From a virus, in the IMG/VR virus record IMGVR_UViG_3300024054_000362, positions 157,423 to 221,422 of that record: 64,000 bases of DNA; one strand, given 5' to 3'. The position numbers and the translations under genes were made by a program. Below are positions 10,695-64,000 of the stretch, in pieces. The notes under the pieces are model-generated. The model was not told the origin of the DNA. It ran no database searches and saw nothing but the letters and a program-made list of their open reading frames with translations. Positions within the stretch are counted from its first letter, which is position 1. The number at the start of each line of letters is the position of its first letter.

Positions 10695-10697
10695 GAG

Positions 10698-11426: not shown

Positions 11427-11435
11427 AGGGACCCC

Positions 11436-11828: not shown

Positions 11829-11835
11829 TCGGAAC

Positions 11836-12327: not shown

Positions 12328-12336
12328 GAGGCACAC

Positions 12337-12519: not shown

Positions 12520-12616
12520 ACGGACTGTCAGTTCACGATCCGAATGCCGACCGGTGAGCAGATCATCGTGGTTGGTCCGTGTCCGACGGCGCTGACCCAA
12601 CCCGTCAACGCGTTGA

Positions 12617-13306: not shown

Positions 13307-13345
13307 CGTTGAAATCGGCGGTGAGGATCTTCATCATACCGTTCG

Positions 13346-16148: not shown

Positions 16149-16172
16149 GGTTTCTCCTGTGCCGTAGCCGGA

Positions 16173-16189
16173 TCCCGCAAAATGCGGGA
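16173..16189 (-). promoter_or_regulatory. Leader stem-loop before 16148 gene
   Basis: TCCCGC-5-nt loop-GCGGGA forms a hairpin between the palindrome at 16213 and the start at 16148. Its position matches the hairpin at 11036 although the sequence differs. Confidence 0.4.
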
Positions 16190-16212
16190 CGAGGTTCCAT
16201 GAAGCTACACCC

Positions 16213-16228
16213 GATCGCGCGAGCGATC
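16213..16228. promoter_or_regulatory. Perfect palindrome GATCGCGCGAGCGATC
   Basis: It is identical to the copies at 10998 and 16928. It overlaps the last codons of the upstream minus-strand gene and lies 64 bases before the start at 16148. On the minus strand it is followed after 5 bases by TAGCTT, similar to TAGGCT and TAGGTT after the copies at 16928 and 18376. Confidence 0.6.
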
Positions 16229-16910: not shown

Positions 16911-16927
16911 GGTCCAAGCCTATCATC

Positions 16928-16943
16928 GATCGCGCGAGCGATC
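16928..16943. promoter_or_regulatory. Perfect palindrome GATCGCGCGAGCGATC in divergent gap
   Basis: It lies between the divergent genes starting at 16910 (minus) and 16997 (plus). It is identical to the copies at 10998 and 16213, and is followed on the minus strand by GATAGGCTT, a possible -10 region. Confidence 0.65.
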
Positions 16944-16996
16944 ACGACTCAGCCTTTGTGCTTCCCCATCGCGGATCCCGTAGTAGGGTCGCCGAC

Positions 16997-17578
16997 ATGA
17001 CGATCGAATCTCTCATCGTTGCGATCCTTGCCATCACGGGCACAGCAGCGCCGCACACGTCCAAGAATGCGCGCGTGCACGCAGAGAGCGCACAGGCAGT
17101 CGCCACCGTCGATTTCCCGGTCGAAGTTCTCCTCGGTACGGCCTACGTCGAATCGCGCTTCTATCAGACGGCGCTGAGTCGGTTGGAGGATTGTACGGAT
17201 CCGAAGGATCCTAAAACCTGCATTCGAAAGACCGGCGTGTGGGCCAGCCATGTACCGCCGCCGACGGCGCGACCGGACTGGTACTGTGGGCCGCTACAGA
17301 CGGGCGGCTGGGTCACGTGGGCCGAGTGTCAGCGGATGCGGACGGACGTGCTGTACGGTTACCAGCAGGGCGTGCGCGAGCTGACGAAGTGGTGGAACGA
17401 TCCGAGCTGTTCGCGACTACCGGATGACGATCGGCTGCGTTGTACGCTTGCCGGACACAACGCCGGGTATGCAGGTGCGGCGAACTACAAGGTCTCGCCG
17501 TACGTTCGTGACGTGTTCAAGGCGCGCGATCGGATCGTGAAGATCACCGAGCACGAAGAGTTGAAGCCGGGTAGCTAG
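16997..17578 (+). CDS. Lytic transglycosylase-like (SLT) protein
   Basis: This 193-residue protein starts MTIESLIVAILAITGTAA, a short hydrophobic segment that may be a signal or anchor. The catalytic region has AYVESRFYQTA with the catalytic Glu (near residue 51), GPLQTGGWV and LAGHNAGYAGA, the order seen in SLT-type lytic transglycosylases. These cleave peptidoglycan glycan strands. It faces the palindrome at 16928 and ends tail to tail with the 17575 gene, their TAG codons overlapping. Confidence 0.7.
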   Translation: MTIESLIVAILAITGTAAPHTSKNARVHAESAQAVATVDFPVEVLLGTAYVESRFYQTALSRLEDCTDPKDPKTCIRKTGVWASHVPPPTARPDWYCGPLQTGGWVTWAECQRMRTDVLYGYQQGVRELTKWWNDPSCSRLPDDDRLRCTLAGHNAGYAGAANYKVSPYVRDVFKARDRIVKITEHEELKPGS

Positions 17579-17904
17579 CGGCGCTTCTTGCGGCGGCTCT
17601 TGCGCTTGCGCGAGCGGCCGAGATTCGTGGGACAGAGACTGCCGTGGTAGAGCAGCGTGCCGGCAGGGTATCCACGGTTTTGCCGAGTCTGATTCCGCTC
17701 GGTGTACCAGTCGACGACCTTACGGTTCGTCGAGGACGAACACGGCACGTAGCATTGGATGTCGCCGCGCTGGCTCGGCTTCCCCGACGCCATCGCGACG
17801 TCGACGCACTCGCGCGTACTGAGGCCGTGGCGCTGCGCGGCGCGGCGCGCGCTTTTCATTGGGCCCTTGACGATCAACGAGACGCTGTTCGCACGTGTCG
17901 CCAC
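17575..17904 (-). CDS. Small basic protein, paralogue of the 20409 protein
   Basis: This 109-residue protein shares a run of segments with the C-terminal half of the 20409 protein: VSLIVKGPMKS against VSLIAKGPKKS, DIQCYVPC against DVQCFTAC, and GTLLYHGSLC against GSLLYVGGSC. It ends RSRKRKSRRKKRR. The conserved cysteines suggest a small folded domain with a basic tail. The function is unknown. Confidence 0.6.
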   Translation of the reverse strand: MATRANSVSLIVKGPMKSARRAAQRHGLSTRECVDVAMASGKPSQRGDIQCYVPCSSSTNRKVVDWYTERNQTRQNRGYPAGTLLYHGSLCPTNLGRSRKRKSRRKKRR

Positions 17905-17906
17905 GG

Positions 17907-18344
17907 TTAGCGTCCTGCGGTGCGGTTCTTGGTGCGGCCCGCGTAGCGGTAGAGCGCGACGCCGAACACTGCGAGCGCACCACCGACGGCGAGCGCGCCA
18001 CCGGCGACGAGCATGTTCGAAACCGTCGGGCTCTGGTTCGCGAGGAACGAGTCGATGCCGCCGAACTGACGTCGGTAGGGGATCACGGTCTGGCCTCCGT
18101 TGATGGACGTGAAGTAGCTGGGGTCGCAGTAGTCGCAGACAGGTCCGCGTGCGGGGTAGCGGCGGCGGTACATCTGCGGCGTGCCGCCGGGGCCGTAGAC
18201 CGGTGTCGCGACGCGGGTCGGTCCGACGATGGCCTGATGTGGCGCGAGCGGCTGACCAGCCGATGGAAAAGACACCGTGGGCTCGTCGCGCAGCCCTGCG
18301 AGCTGCGCGTCACTGAGACCTTCCAAGGTGAATACGTGGGGCAC
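17907..18344 (-). CDS. Unknown protein with C-terminal membrane helix
   Basis: This 145-residue protein starts at GTG with AAGGAG upstream. It has a Pro/Tyr-rich N-terminal part with CDYCDPSYF, then one membrane helix (GGALAVGGALAVFGVALYRY) and a short basic tail (GRTKNRTAGR). It sits in an operon with small basic proteins, 31 bases from the palindrome at 18376. The function is unknown. Confidence 0.55.
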   Translation of the reverse strand: MPHVFTLEGLSDAQLAGLRDEPTVSFPSAGQPLAPHQAIVGPTRVATPVYGPGGTPQMYRRRYPARGPVCDYCDPSYFTSINGGQTVIPYRRQFGGIDSFLANQSPTVSNMLVAGGALAVGGALAVFGVALYRYAGRTKNRTAGR

Positions 18345-18375
18345 TGGGTCAGCTCCTTGCTCTACAACCTACCAC

Positions 18376-18391
18376 GATCGCGTGCGCGATC
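18376..18391. promoter_or_regulatory. Perfect palindrome GATCGCGTGCGCGATC
   Basis: It lies between the stop at 18393 and the start at 18344 on the minus strand. It shares both half-sites with the other copies but not the 4-base centre. On the minus strand it is followed by GGTAGGTTG. Confidence 0.6.
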
Positions 18392-18392
18392 G

Positions 18393-18926
18393 TTACTTAC
18401 GTCGCCGCCCCCGTAGTGGCATGTCGGGCGGGAAATCGAACTTGCCGGTCGCGGCCCACGTGCCACAGGCGGCGTTTGCCTTGGCGACCGCATCCATGGG
18501 CGAGTCGACGTCGACGCGCACACCGGGCTGCTTGTCCGTGGTGCAGAAGCGCAAGAACGGTTGGCCCTTGTCGAATGCAAGTTGAACTGGGCAACCCTTG
18601 CGCTTGAGCGCACCTGCGCACGGCTTGGGACAGGGGCGTGGCTTTATCTTGCCCTTGTGCTTGCCCTTCTTGACTTCGTACTGGCCACACGACTTCCCGT
18701 CGACGGAATCGACGCTCTTGCTCGTCGAACGGAAGCTGCGGTTGAGGTCGAACTGCGTGACGGCAACGCGGCTCTCGCCAACGATCGTACACGCATTGGC
18801 GTCGACCTGTCCCGTTCGACCTGACTTGGCGCCGACAACGACACGAAGACAAGGCACGCTTGACGTGTCTGGCTTTGGCTTCTTGATCTTCTTGGGCTTG
18901 GTCGTGGTCGTTTGGGATTTCGCCAT
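18393..18926 (-). CDS. Lys-rich, Cys-rich small protein
   Basis: This 177-residue protein begins with a Lys-rich stretch (KPKKIKKPKP), has many spaced cysteines (CLRVVV, NACTIVG, SCGQYEV, RPCPKPCAG) and ends RGRRRK. Disulfides or metal binding are likely. It lies just after the GP88-family gene in the same direction. No family is recognised. It fits the set of basic-tailed small proteins of this region. Confidence 0.55.
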   Translation of the reverse strand: MAKSQTTTTKPKKIKKPKPDTSSVPCLRVVVGAKSGRTGQVDANACTIVGESRVAVTQFDLNRSFRSTSKSVDSVDGKSCGQYEVKKGKHKGKIKPRPCPKPCAGALKRKGCPVQLAFDKGQPFLRFCTTDKQPGVRVDVDSPMDAVAKANAACGTWAATGKFDFPPDMPLRGRRRK

Positions 18927-18934
18927 GGCGATCC

Positions 18935-20308
18935 TCAGTGAAGAGAGTAGTTGACGATCTCACCGGGAGCGATCCAACAAGCGCGACAGCCCTTGCCGTC
19001 CGGTCCGCCGAGACCTGGCGGTGCTACGGCTTTGCGACACGTGTGCTTCGCGTCTTCGGTCGCATACGCTTGGCAGTTCCACGTGTAGCGAGGATCGGGA
19101 CCCGTCATCTTCGGCTCGAAGCGTTGGGCATGTTGATAGACGTACTGCTCGCGCTCCGGCGTCATGCCGCGGTTCTGTTCGACTTGCAGTACGACCGTCG
19201 CGCCCGCCCAGCCAGGACCGAGATGCTGTCCGACGGGGTCGTAGCCTTCGATGCGACGATTCCAGCCGGGACCGGGTTCGTTCACTTCGTACGCGCTCGG
19301 TCGGATGATGAAGTTGCGCGGATCGCGGTTGATGTCATTGACCGCGTCGGTACCCCATTCGGTCGCCCAGATGCGCGACGGCGCCCAGAACGTGATGTCA
19401 GGAAGGCGATCTGCGATCATCTTCCACTGCTGCAGGTATTCAGGTTCGAAGAAGTCGCCCGAGTCGTGGATCCGAAAGAAGCGCCGACCGGTCGGTTCAG
19501 ATGGCAGCGCTTGCGTCTTCTCGACGACCTTCTCTTCACCGGTCTCGGTGTTGACGATCTTCACCTCTTCCTTCACCGTGCCGCCGTTCAGCTTGTAGTC
19601 CGCGTTGTTGATCGCGTAGACCATTGTCTCGACGAACGCGGTCGACGGTCCGTACGGGCCTTGAACATTGAACTTGATCGCTTGCCGCGCCCACAGGAAC
19701 CGAAGGATCTGCGCGAACTGCACTTGGCCCGTCGAGTACTGTCCACCCTGCGCGTAACAGAACTGGCAGATGGCCTGCGCCAGGTTGACAGGCGCGTTGT
19801 ACGGTCGACCGAGACCGTAGTTGACGTACTTCGCTGCTTTGCGCAGTGCATCTGCGGGAACGAGGCTTTGTCCAGCGACCGCACCAGGGCACGCGCCACC
19901 GACTTGCGGCGGTCCTGCAGGGATGCTCCACGACGGCGTGTTCATCTTCGACGTCCATGACAGAAGTTGGTACTGCTGGACGTTGGGGTTGGTTGCAGGA
20001 TTCCACGCCGGGCCAGGCCCGATCGGCTGATCGAGCACGACGTAGACGTTGCTCGGATCCTTGCCGTGCACGTTGCCGGGACGGACGACAAACTGCTTGG
20101 TCTCCAGACTACGGATGACGGCGTCACGTACGAACATCATGCCGAGCAGCCCAGCATGCGCATCCGCGAGAACAGCACTGGGCGCAGGACAGGCCGGATG
20201 ATCCTCACCGAGGTACGCGCCGTTCATCGACCCGACGCACATATCGTACGCACGTTCGATGGCGGTGACGTCTTCGGTGACTTCGAGGTGCGGAATGATG
20301 GCTGCCAT
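18935..20308 (-). CDS. GP88-family protein
   Basis: This 457-residue protein has the GP88 pattern known from actinobacteriophages: KMNTPSWSIPAG, then CPGAV, ICQFCYAQGGQYSTG, and RFFRIHDSGDFFEPEYLQQW followed by DITFWAPSRIW. The spaced cysteines and His/Asp residues suggest metal binding, but no activity is established for the family. Here it sits among small basic proteins and is longer than usual, with an extra N-terminal region of about 110 residues. Confidence 0.75.
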   Translation of the reverse strand: MAAIIPHLEVTEDVTAIERAYDMCVGSMNGAYLGEDHPACPAPSAVLADAHAGLLGMMFVRDAVIRSLETKQFVVRPGNVHGKDPSNVYVVLDQPIGPGPAWNPATNPNVQQYQLLSWTSKMNTPSWSIPAGPPQVGGACPGAVAGQSLVPADALRKAAKYVNYGLGRPYNAPVNLAQAICQFCYAQGGQYSTGQVQFAQILRFLWARQAIKFNVQGPYGPSTAFVETMVYAINNADYKLNGGTVKEEVKIVNTETGEEKVVEKTQALPSEPTGRRFFRIHDSGDFFEPEYLQQWKMIADRLPDITFWAPSRIWATEWGTDAVNDINRDPRNFIIRPSAYEVNEPGPGWNRRIEGYDPVGQHLGPGWAGATVVLQVEQNRGMTPEREQYVYQHAQRFEPKMTGPDPRYTWNCQAYATEDAKHTCRKAVAPPGLGGPDGKGCRACWIAPGEIVNYSLH

Positions 20309-20313
20309 GGTGT

Positions 20314-20406
20314 TTACTCGGTGATGCGGTAGCGGTCGCGACCCCGACGATCGAACAAGTTCCCCGAGTTGGGGCGTACGCCTTCGCGAAGATTTGGTGC
20401 ACGCAT
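20314..20406 (-). CDS. Very small basic protein (30 aa)
   Basis: This short frame (MRAPNLREGVRPNSG, then RDRYRITE) lies between the 20409 and 20308 genes. Its ATG is two bases after the upstream TGA and follows a perfect GGAGGCGC site, which is encoded in the upstream Arg tail. The tight fit supports a real micro-gene. The function is unknown. Confidence 0.45.
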   Translation of the reverse strand: MRAPNLREGVRPNSGNLFDRRGRDRYRITE

Positions 20407-20408
20407 CT

Positions 20409-20924
20409 TCAGCGCCTCCGCTTGCGACGACGACGTGTGCCGTCGAGCGCGCTCAGGCACGAACCTCCGACGTACAGCAGCGAGCCGGGCGAACTCCAGG
20501 TCCGCTGCGTCGAACGGTTGGGACGGCTCGCCCTGAACCACTTGTCGAGGCGATCACGCGTCGATGGTGTGCAGGCGGTGAAGCACTGCACGTCCTTGCC
20601 GTGGGTCACGCACGACGACATCGGGATGCCGTAGCGCGCCGCCTCACGCTGGACGCTCTTCTTGGGGCCCTTCGCGATCAGCGAGACGTGCTCGCGGCGC
20701 TTCGCGGTGCCGAGGCCGCGCGAGCCGCGCCCACCCTTGACTTTGACGGACACGACGTTGCGATCGTCGGCAATGCCGGGCGTACCGTGCTTGCCACCCA
20801 TGTTGAGCACCCAGCCACCATGCGATGAACGCATGACGGCGGTGCCCGTGCGCTGTTGGCCTTGTGGCGTGACGATCGTAACGCGATCACCGGGCTTGAT
20901 GACCTTGATCAGTGGATTCGCCAT
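20409..20924 (-). CDS. Basic-tailed protein with N-terminal beta domain
   Basis: This 171-residue protein has an N-terminal part resembling a small beta-barrel (IKPGDRVTIVTPQGQQRTG, then GGWVLNMGG) and a C-terminal half homologous to the 17575 protein (VSLIAKGPKKS, DVQCFTAC, GSLLYVGGSC). It ends RRRRKRRR. The repeat of this module in two genes suggests a real folded domain. Its role is unknown; binding to DNA or envelope polymer is possible. Confidence 0.6.
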   Translation of the reverse strand: MANPLIKVIKPGDRVTIVTPQGQQRTGTAVMRSSHGGWVLNMGGKHGTPGIADDRNVVSVKVKGGRGSRGLGTAKRREHVSLIAKGPKKSVQREAARYGIPMSSCVTHGKDVQCFTACTPSTRDRLDKWFRASRPNRSTQRTWSSPGSLLYVGGSCLSALDGTRRRRKRRR

Positions 20925-20926
20925 GG

Positions 20927-21331
20927 CTAGCGCCTCGCTTTCCGACGGCGTCGACGGCCGAGACCGTTGTTGCGATTGACGAGACAGTTCTCCGCGAACT
21001 CGCCCGCCGCTTTGCGGATCAGGCCTGCGTGCGACGGCGCGCTCGCACGACCGCCCGCGCTCTGGTGTGCGAGGTACTGACCGTAGTGCGTCATCATCTC
21101 GGCGTAGTCAGCCCACGCCGCACCGCACTTGCCGTTGCGCGACTTGTTGGTGACCATCGCGATCGAGTATCCGATGTCGTCGGACGCCTCGGTCATCTTC
21201 TTGGTGTGGATCGCCTCGGAGCTGCCAAGCCCGCGACGTGAACGCTTACGGCGTTGTGCATGGCCCTTCATACGACGCTCGTGCGCTTTGCGTTTGTGGA
21301 ACGCGCGAGAACGCGTCTTCTTGTTCGCCAT
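20927..21331 (-). CDS. Basic-tailed small protein
   Basis: A 134-residue protein, basic at both ends (MANKKTRSRAFHKRKAHERR and GRRRRRKARR) with a helical middle (CGAAWADYAEMMTHYGQYL). The ATG at 21331 follows GGAAGGCGAAG inside the upstream Arg tail, so the genes are coupled. It may bind nucleic acid. The function is unknown. Confidence 0.6.
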   Translation of the reverse strand: MANKKTRSRAFHKRKAHERRMKGHAQRRKRSRRGLGSSEAIHTKKMTEASDDIGYSIAMVTNKSRNGKCGAAWADYAEMMTHYGQYLAHQSAGGRASAPSHAGLIRKAAGEFAENCLVNRNNGLGRRRRRKARR

Positions 21332-21333
21332 GA

Positions 21334-21612
21334 CTAGCGCTTCGCCTTCCGGCGACGACGGCGACGACCGACGCCGCCGCCGACGTTGTAGCACTCGTTG
21401 CGGTTGCACTCGGCGATCGTCCGTTGCATGCCAGGCAGCCCTTCCTCGACGCGACAGACCGCGTTCGGGAACTGGCGCGAGCACGCGTGGCCGGCATCCA
21501 TCGCTGCGCTGTATGACTTGTGGAGGCTGCGTCGATAGCCCGAAGGGCCGCTGACGACAAATCGTCCCGACGACGAGCCGAGTGACTTCCTACGACGACG
21601 TTTCTTCGCCAT
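21334..21612 (-). CDS. Basic-tailed small protein
   Basis: A 92-residue protein starting MAKKRRRRKSLG and ending GRRRRRRKAKR. The middle has SLHKSYSAAMDAGHAC, CRVEEG and AECNRNECYN, so four cysteines lie in a short domain. It belongs to the run of coupled small basic proteins from 22374 to 20409. The function is unknown. Confidence 0.6.
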   Translation of the reverse strand: MAKKRRRRKSLGSSSGRFVVSGPSGYRRSLHKSYSAAMDAGHACSRQFPNAVCRVEEGLPGMQRTIAECNRNECYNVGGGVGRRRRRRKAKR

Positions 21613-21614
21613 GG

Positions 21615-21854
21615 CTAGCGGCTCCTCTTCTTCTTCTTGCTCTTGCCCTTCTTGCGACGACGGCGCCCGAAGTTGACGGGGCACGCGCGCTCGTGGATGC
21701 GTGTGTCGACGTCGCCGACGTTGAGTCGGCGACGGCCGCCCGGGAGGATGACCGTGTGACGAGCGTCGACCTTGCGACGCGTCGCCGTGATCGTCTCGGC
21801 GTCGAACGCGAAGCAGGCGCCGATCGGAAGCTGTCGGAACGTACGCGCTGGCAT
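21615..21854 (-). CDS. Basic-tailed small protein
   Basis: A 79-residue protein. The N-terminal 60 residues look like a beta domain (LPIGACFAFDAETITATRRK, then HTVILPGGRRRLN) and the tail is GRRRRKKGKSKKKKRSR. GAGGAGACG precedes the ATG, which overlaps the upstream TGA. The function is unknown. Confidence 0.6.
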   Translation of the reverse strand: MPARTFRQLPIGACFAFDAETITATRRKVDARHTVILPGGRRRLNVGDVDTRIHERACPVNFGRRRRKKGKSKKKKRSR

Positions 21855-22117
21855 CAACGTCTCCTCTTTCGCGTGCGTCGACTGCGTCCGGCGATTTGGA
21901 GTAAACACACCGGACGAAGGCCGAAGGTCCGCTGGTACTTCTGCCGTAACTTGTCCTCCATCTTGATGCGTGCGTCGGTGCAGTCGGTCGCGGCCACGTC
22001 GACATAGACGTGTTCGGTCCCGACCGTCTTGACCTTGAGGCCTGCGCGACGAATCTTGCGACTCATCTCGACCACGGTGACGGGACCCGTGTGGACCTTC
22101 ATTCGGAAGATCGGCAT
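21854..22117 (-). CDS. Basic-tailed small protein
   Basis: An 87-residue protein. The N-terminus looks like an alpha/beta fold (FRMKVHTGPVTVVEMSRKI, then EHVYVDVAATDCTDARIKM) and the tail is AGRSRRTRKRRR. GGAGGCG lies upstream and the stop overlaps the next ATG. The function is unknown. Confidence 0.6.
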   Translation of the reverse strand: MPIFRMKVHTGPVTVVEMSRKIRRAGLKVKTVGTEHVYVDVAATDCTDARIKMEDKLRQKYQRTFGLRPVCLLQIAGRSRRTRKRRR

Positions 22118-27657: not shown

Positions 27658-30600
27658 TCAGTTGACTTCCGCCCAAGTTTTTCCGGCCTTGGCGTCGACG
27701 GGAAAATTCATCTTGTTGCCGTTGTACTCGACCTCGCGCGTGAAGCACTTCACGACGAGGGCCTTGAGCAGATCCTGATCGTCTTCGTCGCACTCGAAGA
27801 CTACGGCATCGTGGATCTGAAGGATCGGCCACGCGCCCTCGGGCAGGAGCGGCATGATATCCGCGAGCCCCAGGTTGATAAGGTCAGCGCCCGACGCCTG
27901 AATCGGGAAGTTGACGACTTCGGTCAGGTCGAACTGCTTGATCGGAAAACATCGACGACGTCCGAGGATCATGCTTCGGATCTCGCCTTGCTGATCCGCC
28001 ATCCGTTGCATGTCCTGGTGCCACTTGGTGACGCCCGGCATGCGGGTCTTCATCACCTGCACCATCTTGCCGATCATGCCGATGGTGACCTGCGGGTAGT
28101 CGCGGACGACGGCCTTCCACAACGTCTCGATCGAGCCGGCGTAGAACGCGCCGTACTCCGGGCGCTTGATCAGGTCGCGGCGGACCTTGCGTTCGTCGAC
28201 AGGAACCGTGTCGAAGTCCGGCCAGACGATGCGCGCGAACTCGCTATGGATGTCCTTGTCCTTGTGGAAGATGTCGAGGAGGAACGGGTCACCTGACATG
28301 AGCGCGATCAGGCGTGCTTCGAGTTGCTTCGCATCGAAAGCGACGAACGCACGCCCGTACGGTGCGACCACCTGGCTACGGAGGTTGGGGCGTCCCTTCT
28401 TTTTGTCGGCCTTGGGCCAGTTCTGTGCTTGTGGTCCTTCGGAGCGCCATCGTCCAGTGATGGCGTGGACGCTCCATCGTGGGTGAACACGCAGCCACGG
28501 ATCGGCGAAGCCGTAACGGATCTTGCCGGGGATCGGTCGGCCTTCCTTGTCGAGGACCGGGCGATCGAGCATGCGTTCACAGAACGTCGACAGGAGCTTT
28601 GCGTTCTCGCGGTAGTTGAGGAGCGCTTGGATTTCCGGGTACTGCGAGAACGCTTCGAGGACGTCTTTCTTTGTCGAGATTCGACCACTGGCCGTCTGAA
28701 GACTGAGCGGCACACCGCAGGCCTTGAGGAAGGCCACGATGTGATCGCCCGAGTCGATCATGAAGTTGAACTTGCTAGCCTCGATCTCGCCGAGGCGTTT
28801 CGAAATACGTTCGTCAAGATCGATCGGATCGTGCTTTCGCGTACGCCGCGCCTGTTCGAAGGCGAGCCGTTCCTTGAAGCGCGCCAGGATCGTCGGATCC
28901 TGAATTTTGTCGTCCAGCTCTTTTTTGGCCGCATCGATGTTGGCGCGGAAGCCTTTGCGGAGTTGCCCGTTGATTTCTGGATCGATCGGGACGCCCTTCA
29001 TGTGCATCACGCTGGCGGCGTGCGCCATCGCGAGATCCACCTTGTAGGTCTTCTCGGCGTTCGACTCCTTGATGATGAGCGCGATCGGACCTTCGATACG
29101 TGCCGTCGCAAGCGTGTCGCGTGCGTTGTAGGGCAGCAGCTCGTCGAGCGTTCCTTGACCATGGCGGTATTCGGCCTTCCACGGCGGAGCGGCGTAGAAC
29201 TGCGTCAGGACACGCTGAAGGTTGTGTGCGAGGCCTGGGAACGCACTGTGATGCATGAGCATCGTGCAGTGGATTTCGCCGTTGATCTGAAAACCGTGAC
29301 GTTCCAAGACAGGTACGTCGTAGATCCGGTTGTGGAAGATCTTGACGACGGACTCGTCGGCGAACAGTTTGTCGAGCGGTTCGAGAACCTCCGGGATGCA
29401 CAGCTCCCACGCGATGCTGATCGCGCGCTCGAACGTGGCGAGCCCGAGCGCCGACATGTTGGCGTTGTAAGGTGAGAGCGCGGTGTGTTGCTTCGTGTTT
29501 TCGACGAAGGTCTCGGTGTCACACGCGAACCGACCTGAACGGTATGCGTCGACGACGAAGTCGGCGACGAGCTTCTTCGCCCGCTGCCAATCTTCTAGTT
29601 CGACCTGAATGTCGTCGGTGAACTTGATGTCGGCGCCCTGCGAGATCAGGTTCACCTTGGCCGTGTCGTAGAGCAGGTTCCAGAAGGCGAGGTCGACCGT
29701 GTGTGACCCACCACCGCCACTCGCACCGCCGCCACGAAGGATCGCAGCGGGGTGAATGCTCGGGATCACCGCACGCGTCCGTCCGCTGTTGTCGCAGTCG
29801 ACCTCGTGGTACGAGCCCGCCATCTGCGTGATCGAGAACTTCTCGTTGCCAGTGAGTTGTTGGGCGGCGTGAGCCCCGAGGGCGAGGACGGGCACGCCGG
29901 GGAACTGTGCGATCTCTTGTTTGAGTCGGTCGCCACAAGCTTGACGTGCTTGCTTCTTGATGGCGTCGGAGGCGCCGTGCGGCGGTTGGCAGTTGTGAAC
30001 GACGGCTCCGGGCGTGAGGAAGTTGTGCGTGCCTTCCACTTCGAGGCAGTACACGGTCGCGCCTTCGCCTTTTCGTCGGGGGCTCGTACAGACGCTCTCG
30101 GCCTGATCGTAAAAGGCCGCTGCTGGAATGGGCTCGTATGTTTGCGGGTCGTACTTGCCGCGATCTTCAGGTCGAAGTTTGTACGCCATCACAGGTGGAA
30201 CGTAAGTCGCGATCGCAGCACTGAATCGCGCAGTCCCTTCGACCGTGAATCGGATACGGCCGCGCCGAACGCGGTTTTCGAAACCGCGTGCACGTAGTAC
30301 TGCAGAGGCGTGAAGAAGATCTGGTTCGGGAAAGGCGACGCCACAAATCTCGGCGAGCGGACGGTGCCCGTTGCGGATCTGCATGTACCCATCGTCTAGG
30401 TACCAGACGGCAAACAACAGCTCGTCCGCCGAAGCGAGAACAGTCGATGGGATTCGTTTCTTGCCTTCGGGGTAGAAGAGGTCGCGTGTTGCATGTCCCC
30501 ATGCACCGGCAGCTGTACGGAACCCGTACTTAGCTTGCTCATTTTGTCGGGGTGGCTGTTGGAACAGTGACACGCCGAATTTTTTCAACACGCGCGCCTT

Positions 30601-31347
30601 CAGCATCGCGTACTGTTTTTGATCTTCGGCGTGGGTAACTACGAGTGAGCCCTTTGCGAGGGTTCCGTCACCGAGCAACGTTCCATAGGCAACCTGCAGT
30701 GCACGACCCGCAGGTGCCACGTCGCCGGTGGCGATCCACCCACCGTTGATATCGGCGGCGGGTCGCCAACCTTCCGGTGTCAGGACGGGATGATCTTCGG
30801 TAAGTACGGCATGCGTTCGTCCTCGGGCTCCTGCACGTTGCGCCCATCGGAACGATACGTCACGCATCTCGCGCGTTCCTCGTGGATTTCGATACCAGTT
30901 CGTAACGCGCGCTGCGATCACACTCCCTGTTGCGTCGATGGACTGTACGAGTCCGTCATAACGGTTGGCAACGAGGTGATCGATCCGTTTCAGGGATCCG
31001 TCTGCGAGTCGAACTTGGGTGGTCCCTTCGACGCACAGCATGCTGTTCGACACCCACAACGACTCACGTGCGATGCCGAGCCTGGAGAGCGTTTCGTTGA
31101 CGAGACGACCGGAGCTGCCGACGAACGGGCGCTGCTGGATGACTTCGTTCTGGCCAGGTCCTTCGCCGACGACGATGAAGTTTGGCCGTTCCCAGCCCTC
31201 ACCGAAGACAGGTTGGTTCGGTTTGCCGAACTTGCCGAATGGACAGTTTGCGCAGTCGGCGCCGTGCGCGTTGCCGCGGATTGTCTTCGGCGCGTCGTCG
31301 TCGACGAAGCGATCCTCGGACGGCATATCGGCAACGGTGAAGCTCAT
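27658..31347 (-). CDS. Uracil-DNA glycosylase / DNA polymerase A fusion with intein
   Basis: This 1229-residue precursor has three domains. A family 4-like uracil-DNA glycosylase comes first (GEGPGQNEV near residue 61, RPFVGSSG, the Cys split by the intein, LGAHAAQQL, IPSIHPAAIL). A 3'-5' exonuclease follows (FACDTETF near 607, IFHNRIYDVPVL, YNARDTLAT). Last is a family A polymerase (motif A FDAKQLEAR near 1004, motif B RRDLIKRPEYG near 1056, motif C QIHDAVVFE near 1177). All catalytic motifs look intact. The start at 31347 follows GGAGG. The mature enzyme after splicing should have about 881 residues. The glycosylase may remove or sense uracil at the fork. Confidence 0.9.
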   Translation of the reverse strand: MSFTVADMPSEDRFVDDDAPKTIRGNAHGADCANCPFGKFGKPNQPVFGEGWERPNFIVVGEGPGQNEVIQQRPFVGSSGRLVNETLSRLGIARESLWVSNSMLCVEGTTQVRLADGSLKRIDHLVANRYDGLVQSIDATGSVIAARVTNWYRNPRGTREMRDVSFRWAQRAGARGRTHAVLTEDHPVLTPEGWRPAADINGGWIATGDVAPAGRALQVAYGTLLGDGTLAKGSLVVTHAEDQKQYAMLKARVLKKFGVSLFQQPPRQNEQAKYGFRTAAGAWGHATRDLFYPEGKKRIPSTVLASADELLFAVWYLDDGYMQIRNGHRPLAEICGVAFPEPDLLHASAVLRARGFENRVRRGRIRFTVEGTARFSAAIATYVPPVMAYKLRPEDRGKYDPQTYEPIPAAAFYDQAESVCTSPRRKGEGATVYCLEVEGTHNFLTPGAVVHNCQPPHGASDAIKKQARQACGDRLKQEIAQFPGVPVLALGAHAAQQLTGNEKFSITQMAGSYHEVDCDNSGRTRAVIPSIHPAAILRGGGASGGGGSHTVDLAFWNLLYDTAKVNLISQGADIKFTDDIQVELEDWQRAKKLVADFVVDAYRSGRFACDTETFVENTKQHTALSPYNANMSALGLATFERAISIAWELCIPEVLEPLDKLFADESVVKIFHNRIYDVPVLERHGFQINGEIHCTMLMHHSAFPGLAHNLQRVLTQFYAAPPWKAEYRHGQGTLDELLPYNARDTLATARIEGPIALIIKESNAEKTYKVDLAMAHAASVMHMKGVPIDPEINGQLRKGFRANIDAAKKELDDKIQDPTILARFKERLAFEQARRTRKHDPIDLDERISKRLGEIEASKFNFMIDSGDHIVAFLKACGVPLSLQTASGRISTKKDVLEAFSQYPEIQALLNYRENAKLLSTFCERMLDRPVLDKEGRPIPGKIRYGFADPWLRVHPRWSVHAITGRWRSEGPQAQNWPKADKKKGRPNLRSQVVAPYGRAFVAFDAKQLEARLIALMSGDPFLLDIFHKDKDIHSEFARIVWPDFDTVPVDERKVRRDLIKRPEYGAFYAGSIETLWKAVVRDYPQVTIGMIGKMVQVMKTRMPGVTKWHQDMQRMADQQGEIRSMILGRRRCFPIKQFDLTEVVNFPIQASGADLINLGLADIMPLLPEGAWPILQIHDAVVFECDEDDQDLLKALVVKCFTREVEYNGNKMNFPVDAKAGKTWAEVN
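29992..31035 (-). mobile_element. Intein in the glycosylase domain of the polymerase fusion
   Basis: A 348-residue intein starts at Cys (CVEGTTQVRLADGS), ends GAVVHN and is followed by Cys. Block B is HAVLTEDHPVLTPEGW. A LAGLIDADG-type endonuclease is suggested by AYGTLLGDGTL and AVWYLDDGYM, so it may still be mobile. It splits the sequence SNSML / CQPPHG, the position of a likely Fe-S cysteine of family 4 glycosylases (usually KCRPP). Confidence 0.9.
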
Positions 31348-32459
31348 GCGCGCAGTGCCTCCATGAACCACGTGAGCCACGAAGGAAGATCGACGATGGG
31401 CGCCGGAATCCAAAACGCCGGTTCACCAGAAACTTGCGTTGAAGGGGCGACTGCGATGAGGCCTCCTTCACAGAGAATTTCTAGGCCGGCCGCGAATCGT
31501 TGGCTGCGCGGGAGCCAGAGGCCGTGCGGAACGTTGTAGAAGTGCGCGCGCACGTCACCTGTCTGATGTGTCAACGTGATTGGTAGAGGCCCGTCGACAG
31601 TACTGACGGCGCGTGTGACTACGACCAAGAGTCGCGATGCTCCTCCAGTTCGAATGCCGATGCGCGTGCTTGGTGCGTGCCTCCACATATTGGCGACGCG
31701 TTCAGGGCGACATCCAGGAAATGTGTGTGAGACGAGATGCAGTCCAAGTTGTCTACAGGTTGTTCCTTCTGAACACGTACAACCGGCCTTGCCTTGTGCT
31801 TCAGGGGTCCTGAGCGGATTCGTGAATTGTAGATCTCGCAACGGGTCAACCCAGAAGTGGTGCTGCACATACCGTTGCGCAGCTTCGGTCAAGGACACCG
31901 TGTGATTCGGAAGCCAGGACCAGTCTCGGGTCTCGTGAGGCGTTGGTGGTGGTGGTGGCACTGCTGCGAGCAATTGTTCGGCGTCAGCCTCGCGCAGAAA
32001 TTTTTCCGGGATCAGATAACACGGTCGTGCAATGTCTTCGCGCCACCAGTTCGCGTAGCGCGCCAGACGTGGCAATGTCCAACCTACGATCTCGATCGAC
32101 GGACAACGGTGGGTGTTGACCAGGACGTGGGGGACATCTTCGGGATCTTGATCATGGAGTGGTAGACACCCGTTGGGATAGTTCGTCGAGCGAACACGGA
32201 TCCCCCCTACAAGACCAGCTTCTGTCCGCGCCGCTTCCCAGTCGCGCAGATTGAGTGCACCTGCCCATCCACAGTTCAGGAACTGTGCGAATGCGTACTC
32301 AGCGAGTGCACCTTGAATGTCGATCGTCTCACCGTCGGCTGTCGGCGTGACGCGCCCATCGTTGCGACCGCCTTGACGCTGTACGCGATAGCGTGTGCGA
32401 CCAACCTTGACGGCGTGCGCGACCTCGACATCAGACAGTTGAATCTGGATTCGCGTCAC
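31344..32459 (-). CDS. Fusion of unknown domain and dead primase-polymerase (AEP-like) domain
   Basis: This 371-residue protein overlaps the polymerase start by ATGA. Residues 215-371 align by eye with the active AEP at 51726: GCTCSEGTTC, MWRHAPSTRIGI, TLTHQTGDVRAHFY and GLEILCEGGLIAVAPST. But the catalytic metal motif DID is replaced by VTR (LLVVVTRAVS), so polymerase activity is unlikely. The N-terminal 200 residues (DIQGALAEYAFAQFL, then GGIRVRSTNYPNG) could be a PD-(D/E)XK-like fold, which is tentative. Coupling to the polymerase suggests a replisome role. Confidence 0.6.
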   Translation of the reverse strand: MTRIQIQLSDVEVAHAVKVGRTRYRVQRQGGRNDGRVTPTADGETIDIQGALAEYAFAQFLNCGWAGALNLRDWEAARTEAGLVGGIRVRSTNYPNGCLPLHDQDPEDVPHVLVNTHRCPSIEIVGWTLPRLARYANWWREDIARPCYLIPEKFLREADAEQLLAAVPPPPPTPHETRDWSWLPNHTVSLTEAAQRYVQHHFWVDPLRDLQFTNPLRTPEAQGKAGCTCSEGTTCRQLGLHLVSHTFPGCRPERVANMWRHAPSTRIGIRTGGASRLLVVVTRAVSTVDGPLPITLTHQTGDVRAHFYNVPHGLWLPRSQRFAAGLEILCEGGLIAVAPSTQVSGEPAFWIPAPIVDLPSWLTWFMEALRA

Positions 32460-58354: not shown

Positions 58355-58414
58355 ATGAGTACCGTACTGACACATCAAGTCACGATCTGGATGGCAGGCG
58401 ACAAGTTGTGCTGA
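58355..58414 (+). CDS. Possible leader micro-ORF before PAPS-reductase-like gene
   Basis: A 19-residue frame (MSTVLTHQVTIWMAGDK) whose TGA overlaps the GTG start at 58408. It could be a translated leader that couples the two, but it is too short to be certain. Confidence 0.25.
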   Translation: MSTVLTHQVTIWMAGDKLC

Positions 58415-59439
58415 ACCTCGCGAACTGGCGTAAGTACCAGCACCTGTTTGTCCCTCCGTCCGATCGCCCGTGCATCGCTGGAGTCAGCGGTGGTTCGACG
58501 AGTGGTGTGATGGCCGCGCTGCTCTCGGCTGCCGTGCTCATGTCGTTCCAGAACACGGGCAAAGAGCACGCGCTGACTTACGAATTCCTGGAGGCGCTCG
58601 CAGATGCTATCGGTCGCGAGATTGTCTGGTTGGAGTACCGCCCGCCCGCCTCGCGCGGGGCCCCGCCTGCGGCGGCACGTTTTGCAGTCGTAACACCGCG
58701 AACCGCTGATCGTAGCGGCGGACCGTTCGAGATGATGATGATGGACGCGATCAACGCATATCGCGCAGCCATCGGTAAGGGGCCGATCGCGCCGTGGTGG
58801 CGCTCGCGCATCTGCACGACGTACATGAAGACGCGACTCGCGCGCCGCTACGTGGAGTCGCTTGGGTGGAACGGCCACGATGAACTAGTGGGGCTTCGTG
58901 CCGACGAGCCCGATCGTGTGGCCAAACTCCGCGTGGGCGTCCCCAAGCGAATCGGTCGCCATGCGCCGCTTAGCGTCGCTGGTTTCACGGCCAACGATGT
59001 AGCTGCGTTCTGGGGTGAGCAGTCGTTCAGGCTCAACCTGCCGCCTCACCTCGGCAACTGCACTGGATGCTTTCTAAAGGACCAGGCCGACCAAAGCCGC
59101 GCGCTCGACCAGAATGGCGACGTCGATTACTGGGCGGGTATGCAGGAGCGGCATCCGGGATTCGGCGGCAAGAATCACCCCGGCTATCGTCGGCTCGCAG
59201 CCGAGGCGCCATCGCGTTACGCGATTGAGGCGGCACTGTTGGCCGGGCGAACGCCCGATAACGAGAACGGTATGGAGTCTCGTCGGTTCAAGCTTGTTGT
59301 CATCCAGGAGCGCAAGCGGCTAGCCGGACAGGTGGCGCCGTTCTCGTGTGCGTGCGAGGGCTCCGACGCACTAGCGCAGATGGACGACGACGAAGAGAAC
59401 GCATACATCGCATCACTACCAAGTGAGGACGCGGCATGA
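58408..59439 (+). CDS. PAPS-reductase-family protein
   Basis: This protein (343 aa) has the PP-loop of the family as GVSGGSTSGVMAA near residue 25 and a likely metal-binding segment NCTGCFLKDQ. It is longer than cysH and lacks the usual C-terminal motif. Family members reduce PAPS or adenylate groups, and some phage and bacterial relatives modify DNA with sulfur. Here the substrate is not known; DNA modification is one option given the methylase at 23526. It starts at a GTG that overlaps a short upstream frame. Confidence 0.75.
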   Translation: MLNLANWRKYQHLFVPPSDRPCIAGVSGGSTSGVMAALLSAAVLMSFQNTGKEHALTYEFLEALADAIGREIVWLEYRPPASRGAPPAAARFAVVTPRTADRSGGPFEMMMMDAINAYRAAIGKGPIAPWWRSRICTTYMKTRLARRYVESLGWNGHDELVGLRADEPDRVAKLRVGVPKRIGRHAPLSVAGFTANDVAAFWGEQSFRLNLPPHLGNCTGCFLKDQADQSRALDQNGDVDYWAGMQERHPGFGGKNHPGYRRLAAEAPSRYAIEAALLAGRTPDNENGMESRRFKLVVIQERKRLAGQVAPFSCACEGSDALAQMDDDEENAYIASLPSEDAA

Positions 59440-60313: not shown

Positions 60314-60413
60314 GGCTTGACTTGTCAGGTACATCTGCGAAACGTTCAGTTCCAGTAGAGAACGGCTTGACTCGTCGAAGTCGTGCGTGAGAGGTTCAGT
60401 TCGAGTAGAGCGC
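60314..60413 (+). repeat. Two-copy 50-bp tandem repeat upstream of cas3
   Basis: Copy 1 is 60314-60363 and copy 2 is 60364-60413, exactly 50 bp apart. Both contain GGCTTGACT (60314 and 60364), then GTTCAGTTC and AGTAGAG in the same spacing. The 18 bases in the middle differ between the copies. TTGACT resembles a -35 box but no good -10 follows. It is just before the cas3 leader, so it is probably regulatory, or a degenerate CRISPR-like pair. Confidence 0.75.
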
Positions 60414-60430: not shown

Positions 60431-62536
60431 ATGAAGAGCACGAGGCTAGGGCCTCGGTCACTCACTGCCCGTAGGGTTCGGGACGTTGAGCGACCACTGG
60501 TCGAGGACATTCTTGCGACCGCAGATCGTGGAGCCGCTCTCGCCGTAGCGTTCGGTGCGCAGGAAACTCGCGCTGTCTGTCTTTGGTCGGATATCGGCAA
60601 GGCATCCGAGTCCTGGCAGATCCAGCAACGCGGGTCGAAGTACGGCCTACGTATTAACCATGTTGGATTAGGCGTTTGGCACACCTTACGCGTTCCCGGC
60701 ATCCCGTCCATGCAACGATTGGCAATCGCTGTCGCGATCGCCGGTCACCATGGTGGTCTCCCAGACGCAAGTTACCTACCTGCACTGGCAGATGAGAGCG
60801 CACCGCTTCGAGAGGCGCTGATCGATCTTCCCGACGAGATCACTGCCCTTCCCGTAATGCGACAACGTCGGTTCGCAAACGCGACGCATTTGTTCATGTT
60901 CACGCAGATGATCGCGTCGGCACACATCGACGCCGACTGGCAAAACGCGGCGGAATGGGAGCGAGAAGTCTGTGGTGCGCCCATCACACGACCTTCGTAT
61001 CCGAGCATCGAACAGCTCTACCGACAGTTGGAGAGCGTGTGCAGTGACACACGGCTCGATCGGAGCGATCTCCGTACTGCGTTCCGTTTGCACTATCTAA
61101 GTGCCGCTGAACGTGTTCCGGGGTTCTATTCGTTCTCAGCCCCTCTCGGTGCGTTCAACGTCGAAGCCTTGGCGCTGTACGGGCTGGCACACGCGCGACG
61201 CAACGCACGAGAAAGGGTCATCCTTGTCTGTTCGACGCAGATGATGTTCGAAGAGTGCACAGACAAGCTTCGTGCCTCTCTCGGAGACGCATTCGCAGAG
61301 CCCGCCGCGTTCGACGTCCAAAGTTGTGGGTTCAGTCCTCGTGTCGAGACCTGGGACGCTCCTGTCGTCGTTACCGCGCTTCGAGATTTCTTAGGGCTCC
61401 TCTTTGACAATCGTCCAGCGTCTCTGCGACGTTTCCATCACCTCGCACGCGCAGTGGTCGTTGTCGTCGACGCACAACAGATCCCGTTGCCCGTGCGCAC
61501 GTTGACCCGCGAAGCGTTACAAGTACTCGTTGATCATTTCCACGCTTCGGTGTCGCTCGTGTCGGCGGTCCCCTACGGAGTCGCGGAGGACGATCGACCA
61601 GAGTTGTTGGGGCCAAAGGACGCCTTCAACACGGTCTACGGAGAGATTCAGACCACATGGCCCGATCATCACGAACCGTTACCCTCCGCCGTACAGATCG
61701 CACACGAGATCGCCGAGCACGCTGAGTGTTTGACGGTTCTCCAAGATGCATCCAGATTGCGTGAGGTAGCACAAGCGATGAGGGCGTACGTCCCCGACGT
61801 CCAGGTCACTGCCGTGTCGTCTCGGATGTGTGCTGAACATCGTCGTGCGGTGATACGTAACCTTCGTGGAGGGTGTATCATCGCCGACGAAATCGGGAGT
61901 GCTCTCGCGAGGACGTTCAATACGGTCCTGTGTGAGATGACCGAACTGCCGACCATGGCCGCTGCTGCCTGTCGTGCGTTTGGTGACGGTCAGCGGCGTG
62001 CAAACTTCAAAGTTCTTCTCTCGACGAGACGTACGGCTGGAGCTGTCGTCACGCACCTCATGTGGCGAGGTCGTTCAACACTGGCGTTTCAGGATCCCGC
62101 AACCTGGCGCGAGTACTTTCTGGACTTGCGCTCCGGGGTTCTACCAAACGATCGGCAGTGGGCCGACGCTCGTCAGGCGGACGTCGAGTGTCTTCGGTTC
62201 CGAACACTGGCCGCGGAAATGTTGCGTGTCGGCAAACGCTGCGCGGCACCTGTGAGCCTTGGGTTGGGAGAAGCCAGCCTAGTCCCGGTCGTCGTTCCTA
62301 TGCCACTGCCGAGGGGTGGCTCCAGACCGGCGACCAAAGCCTTGATCGACAGGCTTCGTGCAGACGGTTCAAGTCAAGAAATTCTACGTCGACTCATGAG
62401 CTACGTCGTGTGGATCTCCGTCGACGAGCGCACACAACTTCTTCGCGACGGTCATGCTGTCTGGGTCAGCGAGGCCGTGGTCTATGTGATCAACGAGCTT
62501 CTGTACGATGAATTTGGGCTGAAGCCACTAGCCTAG
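60431..62536 (+). CDS. cas3: Type I-C Cas3-like protein with degenerate nuclease and helicase motifs
   Basis: This 701-residue protein has full Cas3 length. HD domain: the first His of the usual EHL is Asp (VEDIL, near 24-28), HDIGK is SDIGK (53-57), but NHVGLG, AGHHGGLPD (104-112) and HIDAD (165-169) remain. Helicase: Walker A is APLGAFNV (237-244) with no GKT, DEAQ is VDAQ (346-349), SAT is SAV, and the QxxGRxxR of motif VI is AACRAFGDG. So ATP binding is probably lost, and DNA cleavage is doubtful. ATTTAGGGAGC precedes the ATG. It probably still binds Cascade. I keep the name cas3 for homology. Confidence 0.85.
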   Translation: MKSTRLGPRSLTARRVRDVERPLVEDILATADRGAALAVAFGAQETRAVCLWSDIGKASESWQIQQRGSKYGLRINHVGLGVWHTLRVPGIPSMQRLAIAVAIAGHHGGLPDASYLPALADESAPLREALIDLPDEITALPVMRQRRFANATHLFMFTQMIASAHIDADWQNAAEWEREVCGAPITRPSYPSIEQLYRQLESVCSDTRLDRSDLRTAFRLHYLSAAERVPGFYSFSAPLGAFNVEALALYGLAHARRNARERVILVCSTQMMFEECTDKLRASLGDAFAEPAAFDVQSCGFSPRVETWDAPVVVTALRDFLGLLFDNRPASLRRFHHLARAVVVVVDAQQIPLPVRTLTREALQVLVDHFHASVSLVSAVPYGVAEDDRPELLGPKDAFNTVYGEIQTTWPDHHEPLPSAVQIAHEIAEHAECLTVLQDASRLREVAQAMRAYVPDVQVTAVSSRMCAEHRRAVIRNLRGGCIIADEIGSALARTFNTVLCEMTELPTMAAAACRAFGDGQRRANFKVLLSTRRTAGAVVTHLMWRGRSTLAFQDPATWREYFLDLRSGVLPNDRQWADARQADVECLRFRTLAAEMLRVGKRCAAPVSLGLGEASLVPVVVPMPLPRGGSRPATKALIDRLRADGSSQEILRRLMSYVVWISVDERTQLLRDGHAVWVSEAVVYVINELLYDEFGLKPLA

Positions 62537-62598
62537 GTGGCTGGTCTTCCGAGCAGGTTCGCAGGGAAAGTAGGCTAGGTACGCCTTAAAAATCAAGG

Positions 62599-62620
62599 AC
62601 TTACGAGTTTACTCTCGACA
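62599..62620 (+). promoter_or_regulatory. Shared leader motif before cas5
   Basis: ACTTAC, then GAGTTT, then ACTCTCGACA. It repeats the element at 5207-5227 with one substitution and one extra base, and is preceded by CCTTAAAAATC against CCTAGGAAATC there. It lies 44 bases before the cas5 start, so cas5 and cas8 may have their own promoter, separate from cas3. Confidence 0.5.
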
Positions 62621-62663
62621 GAACGGACGCCTCGCGCGTCGTAGACAACAACAGGGAGAGCAC

Positions 62664-63299
62664 ATGAAACGGAGCAGTGTACTTGCACTACGCGCAATGG
62701 GGCGGCGCGCGTGTTGGACGAACCATCTTTGTCGTGTCGAACGACAGACATACGACATTCCTACGCCGTCTGGCGCTGTAGGGGTGTTCGAAGCTGTCAA
62801 TTGGCATCCCGGAATGCATTGGGAGCTGCACAAAATCTGGGTACTCAAGCCCATTCAGCACTTTTCACTGCGCACGAACGAGGTGAAGTGTTTCGCAGGC
62901 CGCCAGCCAATCAACATCGACAGCAATCGGACGCAGCGCAATACCGTCGGGCTCTACGACGTCGACTACATCTTCGAGGCCAGCTTCGTACTGGACGCGC
63001 GTGCGTCTCACGACGTCGCGACCAACGAAGACATCTTTCGTCGGCGCGTCAAGAACGGTGCCTGCTATCACACGCCGTATCTGGGGATGCACCCCTTTAT
63101 CTGTGACGTGATGGCGCCGCCTGCCCAGTATACGCCGATTCGCCTGAGTCGGAGTTTTGGGCGAATGTTGTACGGGTTCGACTACACGAATAAGAAGCCG
63201 ACGCCGCTCTACTTCGAAGCCTCGATGGAGAACGGTGTCGTGCAGATCCCTTCGCGTGAATACGTTCTTCAGAACCAAGGGATCAACCATGTTCCGTGA
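62664..63299 (+). CDS. cas5: Cas5c (type I-C), putative crRNA-processing endonuclease
   Basis: This protein (211 aa) has the Cas5c/Cas5d layout: RVERQTYDIPTPSGAVGVFE (near 24-43), then LKPIQHFSLRTNEVK and IFRRRVKNGACYHTPYLG (near 124-141). The Tyr and His in these segments correspond to conserved residues of the family, in which Cas5 replaces Cas6 as the pre-crRNA endonuclease; the lysine at 130 may be catalytic too. AGGGAGAGC precedes the ATG. It overlaps cas8c by 11 bases. Confidence 0.9.
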   Translation: MKRSSVLALRAMGRRACWTNHLCRVERQTYDIPTPSGAVGVFEAVNWHPGMHWELHKIWVLKPIQHFSLRTNEVKCFAGRQPINIDSNRTQRNTVGLYDVDYIFEASFVLDARASHDVATNEDIFRRRVKNGACYHTPYLGMHPFICDVMAPPAQYTPIRLSRSFGRMLYGFDYTNKKPTPLYFEASMENGVVQIPSREYVLQNQGINHVP

Positions 63300-64000
63300 G
63301 TTGTACGAATTCGCCCAGCGCAACCGATTAGCAGACCCCGGCTTTCAGAATCGATTCGTCCATTACGAGATCGTCCTCGACGAGAACGGTCGATTGATCT
63401 CAGGACATCGGATCGACGCAGAAATGCGCGCCCCCATGATGCCGAACAGGGCTGGTACCATCGTCCGTCCACAAGCTTGCATCGAATCGGTGCAGTACAT
63501 CCTTGGGCACGTCCTCGCAAAGCCGGGGGAGGACCCGCACAAGAAGCAAGAGCGTGCAGTGATTCTCTTCCGGGGACACTACGCGCACGTACACCGTATG
63601 GCGGAGGAAACCGGCGATCCCTACGCTCGGGCGTTGGCCAACTTCGTACGAGACGTCGACAATGGTGTCTATGGTCCGCCTCAACAGGCCGCCGAACGCT
63701 GTTTGGGATGGACATCTGTCGACGAACCGCTTACCGGCAGTGAGTGGTGTGTCTTCGCCGTCAAGGAACCGGATCAGCCGAAGTACTACATCCACGATCG
63801 GCCGGCGGTCTCACAGTGGCTTCGCGCGAACCGGCCCACTGCCGACAGCGACGTTGTTATCACATGCGCTGTGACAGGTCGCCAAGACAAACTCTGTATG
63901 ACGTGGAACAAGGTCAAAGGCATTCCTGGTACGCAAGGGTCAACTCTCGTTTCGTACAACCATGCCCCGTGGACTTCCTACGGCTTCGACCAAGGGGAAA
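63289..64000 (+). CDS. cas8c: Cas8c (Csd1) large subunit, cut by right edge
   Basis: The first 237 residues are visible. Family signature CAVTGRQDKL (near 193) and VKGIPGTQGSTLVSYNHAP (near 209-227) with TSYGFDQG match the conserved Csd1 core. The N-terminus MFRELYEFAQR is shorter and more divergent than in bacterial Cas8c. It recognises PAM and completes the type I-C Cascade with Cas5c and Cas7c; cas7 is expected next. AAGGGATC precedes the ATG. Confidence 0.9.
   Translation, partial: MFRELYEFAQRNRLADPGFQNRFVHYEIVLDENGRLISGHRIDAEMRAPMMPNRAGTIVRPQACIESVQYILGHVLAKPGEDPHKKQERAVILFRGHYAHVHRMAEETGDPYARALANFVRDVDNGVYGPPQQAAERCLGWTSVDEPLTGSEWCVFAVKEPDQPKYYIHDRPAVSQWLRANRPTADSDVVITCAVTGRQDKLCMTWNKVKGIPGTQGSTLVSYNHAPWTSYGFDQGE

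What the first reader, a model, noticed from the sequence alone, without database searches (positions are those of the whole stretch)
60431..64000. Phage-borne type I-C CRISPR-Cas with a Cas3 that has lost its catalytic motifs
Cas5c and Cas8c carry clear family signatures and their Tyr/His and core motifs look intact, but the full-length Cas3-like protein has no Walker A lysine (GAFNV for GxGKT), no DExx acid pair (VDAQ), SAV for SAT, no motif VI arginines, and only part of the HD site (SDIGK, VED). Retention of length with coordinated loss in all motifs suggests selection for a non-cutting role: a Cascade that binds and represses host or rival phage genes, or one that recruits a host Cas3. 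Phage-encoded CRISPR systems are known; this combination of a Cas3 pseudoenzyme with type I-C effector genes appears unusual.
Basis: partly seen in the sequence, partly recalled or inferred. Interest (0 to 1): 0.95.

Follow-up and report, generated by a model that had tools for sequence, protein, structure and literature searches.

The report
Virus-borne CRISPR with crippled cutting enzyme
A large virus-like genome carries a CRISPR system whose cutting motor (Cas3) has lost its ATP-driven helicase, whose backbone protein (Cas7) has been re-cut so that its front end now sits at its back end, and whose repeats have drifted apart, which suggests a DNA-binding tool that no longer shreds its targets.

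Summary
The core observation holds. Window 60431-62536 encodes a full-length type I-C Cas3 homologue that has lost helicase motifs I, II, III, V and VI. It keeps only 5 of 19 positions conserved in helicase motifs of other virus-borne I-C Cas3s, but 8 of 10 HD-nuclease positions. Cas5c and Cas8c follow.

The window is the end of a 221,422-base IMG/VR record. A second record bridges its ends, so the whole locus could be read: cas3*-cas5c-cas8c-cas7c-CRISPR array. No Cas1, Cas4 or second Cas3 was found in the genome.

Two stranger features lie outside the window. Cas7c is circularly permuted: the profile is covered once, positions 90-288 first and 4-96 last. None of 19 other virus-borne Cas7s found is like this. 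The array has 46 handles, but 21 different sequences among 29 well-formed 36-nt repeats; the 3' handle and hairpin are conserved and the loop is not.

Best reading: an adaptation-less, helicase-dead I-C Cascade used to bind and block DNA rather than shred it. Targets are unknown. New variant of a known kind. "Phage" is IMG/VR's classification; no terminase or capsid gene was recognised.

The parts
60316..60410 (+). Tandem duplicate of a ~45-50 nt unit (CTTGACTYGTC...GTTCAGTTCSAGTAGAG) directly upstream of cas3; occurs only here in the genome; possible promoter/operator of the operon
   Evidence: Sequence; the 17-nt core occurs twice in 221 kb, both here. No sigma-70 consensus site found. Function inferred.
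60431..62536 (+). cas3-like gene, 701 aa, helicase motifs lost, HD domain mostly kept (H26D, H53S)
62664..63299 (+). cas5c, 211 aa; usual processing-site residues substituted
   Evidence: TIGR01876 112.4 bits; solved-structure matches; alignment
63289..64000 (+). cas8c, 5' part (237 of 670 aa); continues at the other end of the record (whole gene L002:12859-14871); starts 11 nt before the end of cas5c
   Evidence: The rest of the locus is outside the window: cas7c at G000:C1:1381-2562 (L002:14956-16137) and the CRISPR array at G000:C1:2742-6215 (L002:16317-19790)

Best explanation
This is a type I-C variant carried by a virus or other mobile element that most likely works as an RNA-guided DNA roadblock. 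The long array is transcribed and cut at its hairpins into guides carrying the conserved handle. Cas5c, Cas8c and a circularly permuted Cas7c assemble around each guide. The complex binds matching DNA in the host or in a rival element and blocks transcription or replication. The Cas3 homologue may still dock, but without ATP hydrolysis it cannot reel in and shred DNA; at most it nicks locally or adds bulk. New spacers, if gained, must come from host adaptation proteins or recombination. Shown: gene content, motif losses, Cas7 permutation, array structure, and that no Cas1, Cas4 or second Cas3 was found. Inferred: expression, processing, assembly, binding, repression.
For: Complete cas3*-cas5c-cas8c-cas7c-array locus read across the record's ends. 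Helicase motifs lost while the ORF and the overall predicted fold are kept: pLDDT 76, pTM 0.76, best PDB matches the I-C Cas3s 8zns and 8g9u. About 3.3% of single-base changes in this ORF would create a stop, so a long-unconstrained 701-codon frame would not be expected to stay open. Cas7 keeps every segment of its profile once despite permutation, which argues that the fold is still needed. Repeats keep the handle (93% mean column identity) and stem (87-90%) while the loop varies (63% over its six positions, about 48% at the four variable ones). Changes outside the variable loop are mostly transitions (60:9) against 15:31 in the loop, Fisher p=2e-9, or 19:7 against 3:7, p=0.03, counting each distinct change once. 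I-C Cascade without Cas3 is known to repress genes (PMC10865793).
Against: No spacer matches its own genome convincingly (best are 15-19 nt, close to the shuffled control) or known phages and plasmids, and the four spacers tested in IMG/VR had no real match, so no target is known. Stem variation shows no compensatory covariation beyond shuffles. Cas5c lacks the usual processing residues. AlphaFold of the permuted Cas7 was poor with the shallow alignment available (pLDDT 48.5). No diverged relative of the virus was found, so selection could not be measured.
Confidence: 0.45

Rival explanations
1. The HD domain still cuts: the Cas3-like protein is recruited by Cascade and nicks the displaced strand locally with a partial metal site, without helicase-driven shredding.
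For: 8 of 10 conserved HD positions kept, including D54, K57, H77, H106, H107 and D169. L033, another virus record, keeps 10 of 10 HD but only 10 of 24 helicase-motif positions, so helicase loss with HD retention has happened more than once.
Against: H26 and H53, invariant in the 11 comparison sequences, are lost; from my own knowledge of T. fusca Cas3, their equivalents bind one of the two metals and are needed for nuclease activity.
Confidence: 0.17
2. Cascade binds and a Cas3 supplied by the host does the cutting, so the virus attacks rivals with a host enzyme.
For: A complete I-C effector set without its own motor; published discussion that phage systems may use host Cas proteins (PMC7162821).
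Against: The virus keeps a full-length Cas3 homologue, which would compete for docking. The repeat pattern was found in no array in the GTDB species genomes or other IMG/VR contigs, so no matching host system is known.
Confidence: 0.13
3. A decaying relic: the system lost its motor and adaptation genes and is drifting; degenerate repeats are the sign of decay.
For: Cas5c and Cas3 catalytic residues changed; irregular repeat spacing and about 15 malformed repeats; no stem covariation; only one genotype known.
Against: Four intact ORFs; several replacements in each helicase motif without any frameshift; Cas7 kept whole through a permutation; the handle conserved in 46 copies while the loop varies.
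Confidence: 0.15
4. A decoy: diverged Cascade parts or pseudo-Cas3 interfere with host I-C immunity, for example by sponging host crRNA or occupying host Cas3 docking sites.
For: An inactivated phage Cas9 is proposed to act as a decoy, and AcrIF3 mimics a Cas8f domain (PMC11656645).
Against: A decoy would not need a 3.5-kb array with its own repeats and dozens of spacers.
Confidence: 0.1

Closest known systems
Type I-C (cas3-cas5c-cas8c-cas7c), e.g. Neisseria lactamica / Desulfovibrio vulgaris, PDB 8g9u, 8g9s, 7kha, 8zns
   Same: Gene set and order; Cas5c and Cas8c families; Cas7 sequence segments; I-C-like repeat hairpin and a GGATAGAAAC handle close to GGATTGAAAC
   Different: Cas3 helicase motifs lost; Cas7 circularly permuted with an NG-rich N-terminal extension and an acidic tail; repeats diversified; no Cas1 or Cas4 found in the genome
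Huge-phage type I-C variant of Al-Shayeb et al. 2020 (PMC7162821)
   Same: Large virus genome, I-C-like effector, no adaptation genes, altered Cas5d active site noted
   Different: That variant has another helicase in place of Cas3; here a true Cas3 homologue is kept but degenerate. No permuted Cas7 or diversified repeats are mentioned in the passages read
Type IV-A, type V-M (Cas12m) and nuclease-less CAST Cascades
   Same: RNA-guided binding without target shredding (PMC11656645)
   Different: Different effector families; no DinG, transposase or inactive Cas12 seen at this locus
L033 (IMGVR_UViG_3300009514_000001, 222,005 bases)
   Same: Virus-borne I-C-like locus whose Cas3 keeps HD (10/10) but has lost much of the helicase (10/24)
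   Different: Ordinary Cas7 order, Walker A lysine kept, uniform repeats

Membership tests
Type I-C CRISPR-Cas | cas5c, cas8c, cas7c of the I-C families in one operon | tested here: met
   TIGR01876 above cutoff; Cas8c full-length PF09709 (9.5e-59), though below the TIGR01863 equivalog cutoff; Cas7 PF05107 (2.5e-53), just below the TIGR02589 cutoff (176.7 vs 182.25 bits)
Type I-C CRISPR-Cas | Cas3 with working SF2 helicase motifs | tested here: not met
   5 of 19 conserved motif positions kept; motifs I, II, III, V, VI altered
Type I-C CRISPR-Cas | Cas3 HD nuclease ligands | tested here: inconclusive
   8 of 10 kept; H26D and H53S; activity untested
Type I-C CRISPR-Cas | Cas1-Cas2-Cas4 adaptation module | tested here: not met
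   No Cas1 (PF01867) or Cas4 (PF01930) match in the 221-kb record; Cas2 not searched by profile
Type I-C CRISPR-Cas | CRISPR array with uniform hairpin repeats ending in ATTGAAAC | tested here: inconclusive
   46 handles, hairpin kept, but 21 variants among 29 well-formed repeats and a GGATAGAAAC ending
Type I-C CRISPR-Cas | Cas7 in the ordinary N-to-C order | tested here: not met
   Circular permutation: profile 90-288 at residues 58-258, then 4-96 at 284-372; artificially re-permuting gives one hit 4-288
Type I-C CRISPR-Cas | Cas5c cleaves pre-crRNA | not testable with these tools
   Active-site positions differ (N, T, N), but N. lactamica Cas5c also departs at two of them
Bacteriophage genome | Terminase, capsid or portal genes | tested here: inconclusive
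   DNA polymerase, RNR, dCTP deaminase and a vWA protein ~34% identical to phage homologues found. No convincing terminase or capsid: PF03237 and phrog_2 absent, and only one partial 'terminase' match on an ATPase among the proteins scanned; not every ORF was scanned

The most novel reading that the evidence does not exclude
A naturally circularly permuted Cas7 forms the backbone of a working, helicase-dead Cascade in a virus, guided by an array whose repeats have been diversified under constraint (handle and hairpin kept, loops free), possibly because dissimilar repeats resist recombinational loss of spacers.
Probability: 0.35. Interest if true: 0.87.

Novelty: new variant of a known kind. 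Interest (0 to 1): 0.7.

Why it matters
If functional, it would be a natural, virus-borne form of CRISPR interference by binding alone, built from type I-C parts. It would show that the Cascade backbone protein tolerates circular permutation, which is useful for engineering fusions at new termini, and that a long array can work with dissimilar repeats. It would also give a test case for why viruses keep a Cas3 body without its motor.

Tried and rejected
Spacer targets: own genome, phages and plasmids and four spacers in two merged exact patterns in IMG/VR (the two extra hits matched only 24 of 37-38 positions); none convincing. GATC enrichment of the array as a methylation signal: dropped, because GATC in the genome is as expected from trinucleotides. 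Compensatory covariation of the repeat stem: not above shuffles. Host by shared repeat: one lone match in a Rhodobacteraceae MAG, not followed further. Relatives of the virus by DNA polymerase: only identical records. AlphaFold of Cas7: too low confidence to use. Assembly artefact for the Cas7 permutation: rejected, the gene is away from the record's ends and identical in a second record. Several alignments of Cas7 fragments (A5, A6, A8) were misaligned and were not used for the model. A first run of the permutation test read a gapped sequence by mistake and was repeated.

Full report
Setting. The window is G000:C1:157423-221422, the last 64 kb of a 221,422-base IMG/VR record. A second record, IMGVR_UViG_3300044996_000468 (L002), is the same virus. 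Its bases 1-13570 match the end of G000 (one difference) and 13576-22103 match its start, with 5 bases between. The genome is therefore circular or circularly permuted, and the locus cut off by the window can be read in full: cas3-like, cas5c, cas8c, cas7c, then a CRISPR array.

Cas3. The 701-aa protein matches TIGR01596 above cutoff and the solved I-C Cas3s 8zns and 8g9u by sequence. Eleven other virus-borne Cas3s gathered through a Cas7-motif scan of IMG/VR align well with it. Of positions conserved in at least 9 of those 11, it keeps 8 of 10 in the HD site, 5 of 19 in helicase motifs and 29 of 65 elsewhere. In leave-one-out controls nine of the eleven others keep 18 or more of their helicase-motif positions and one keeps 16 of 23; the clear exception is L033 (10 of 24, with HD 10 of 10). 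So the loss is a helicase loss first, with partial damage to the HD site (H26D, H53S). A model built on that alignment reached pLDDT 76 and pTM 0.76, and its best structural matches are type I-C Cas3s; the overall fold appears kept.

Cas5c and Cas8c. Both are clear family members. The Cas5c positions that carry Y/H/F/L and K-H/K-Y/K-F in most relatives are N and T-N here, so an intact processing site is not supported, though two other virus Cas5cs also lack the lysine.

Cas7c. A profile made from 19 ordinary virus Cas7s hits this protein twice, out of order: profile 90-288 at residues 58-258 and profile 4-96 at 284-372. Artificially re-permuting the protein turns this into a single hit over 4-288, and doubling it gives a full-length hit across the join. 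Ordinary Cas7s permuted artificially as a control give the same split pattern. The break falls in a loop that varies among relatives; a linker joins the old C-terminus to the old N-terminus. All the other Cas7s for which both halves were matched have one ORF in the ordinary order. No paper in the held library was found to report a permuted Cas7.

Array. The array spans L002:16317-19790 with 46 handles. Among 29 well-formed 36-nt repeats there are 21 sequences, mean pairwise identity 81%. Arrays of other virus loci were mostly uniform; L032 has truncated repeats and L029 a degenerate end. Column conservation is about 93% in the handle, 87-90% in the stem and 63% in the loop. Changes outside the variable loop are mostly transitions, many of which keep G-U pairing, while loop changes are not. 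Identical changes may be shared by descent, so the stronger p-value overstates the case; the p=0.03 version counts each change once. Compensatory covariation is absent. Repeats were first found by their handle, but a separate search by stem arms gave 50 left arms and 52 right arms in the same region. Neighbouring repeats resemble each other more than chance allows (0 of 5000 shuffles), which suggests local copying.

Genome. No Cas1, Cas4 or second Cas3 was found. The genome carries a DNA polymerase with an apparent intein, RNR, dCTP deaminase, Prim-Pol, integrases and a vWA protein about 34% identical to Aeromonas, Dickeya and Klebsiella phage proteins. No convincing terminase or capsid protein was recognised, so phage identity rests on IMG/VR.

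Function. A complete guide-binding set, no motor, no adaptation genes found and a constrained array fit an RNA-guided roadblock. The precedent is that N. lactamica I-C Cascade without Cas3 represses genes (PMC10865793), and that type IV-A and Cas12m act without cleavage (PMC11656645). A partly kept HD site leaves room for local nicking. The idea that dissimilar repeats protect the array from recombination is speculation.

Novelty. A type I-C variant with another helicase in place of Cas3 is known in huge phages (PMC7162821). A retained pseudo-helicase Cas3 with a permuted Cas7 and diversified repeats is, as far as could be searched here, new.

Noticed in passing
G000:C1:1381-2562 (L002:14956-16137): Circularly permuted Cas7c with an NG-rich N-terminal extension and acidic C-terminal tail; Cas8c also ends in an Ala/Gln-rich stretch and acidic tail.
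   Followed up: yes
G000:C1:2742-6215: CRISPR array with strongly diversified repeats and some nested or truncated hairpins.
   Followed up: yes
L033 (IMGVR_UViG_3300009514_000001): Another 222-kb virus record whose I-C Cas3 keeps the HD site but has lost helicase motifs V and VI.
   Followed up: partly
L032 (IMGVR_UViG_3300005613_000001, 527 kb): I-C-like array in which several repeats are shortened at the 5' end while the 3' part is kept.
   Followed up: partly
window 58408-59439: PAPS-reductase (CysH)-like protein upstream of cas3 with SGGSTS in place of the usual SGGKDS; weak Pfam match. Type IV-B systems carry inactivated CysH-like proteins.
   Followed up: no
whole record G000: No recognisable terminase, portal or capsid in a 221-kb circular virus record that has DNA polymerase, RNR and tRNAs; a HerA/FtsK-like ATPase at window 32456-34177 matches a 'terminase' PHROG over part of its length. 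Virion type unclear.
   Followed up: partly
window 27658-31413: DNA polymerase ORF with an N-terminal uracil-DNA-glycosylase-like part interrupted by a LAGLIDADG segment, apparently an intein.
   Followed up: no
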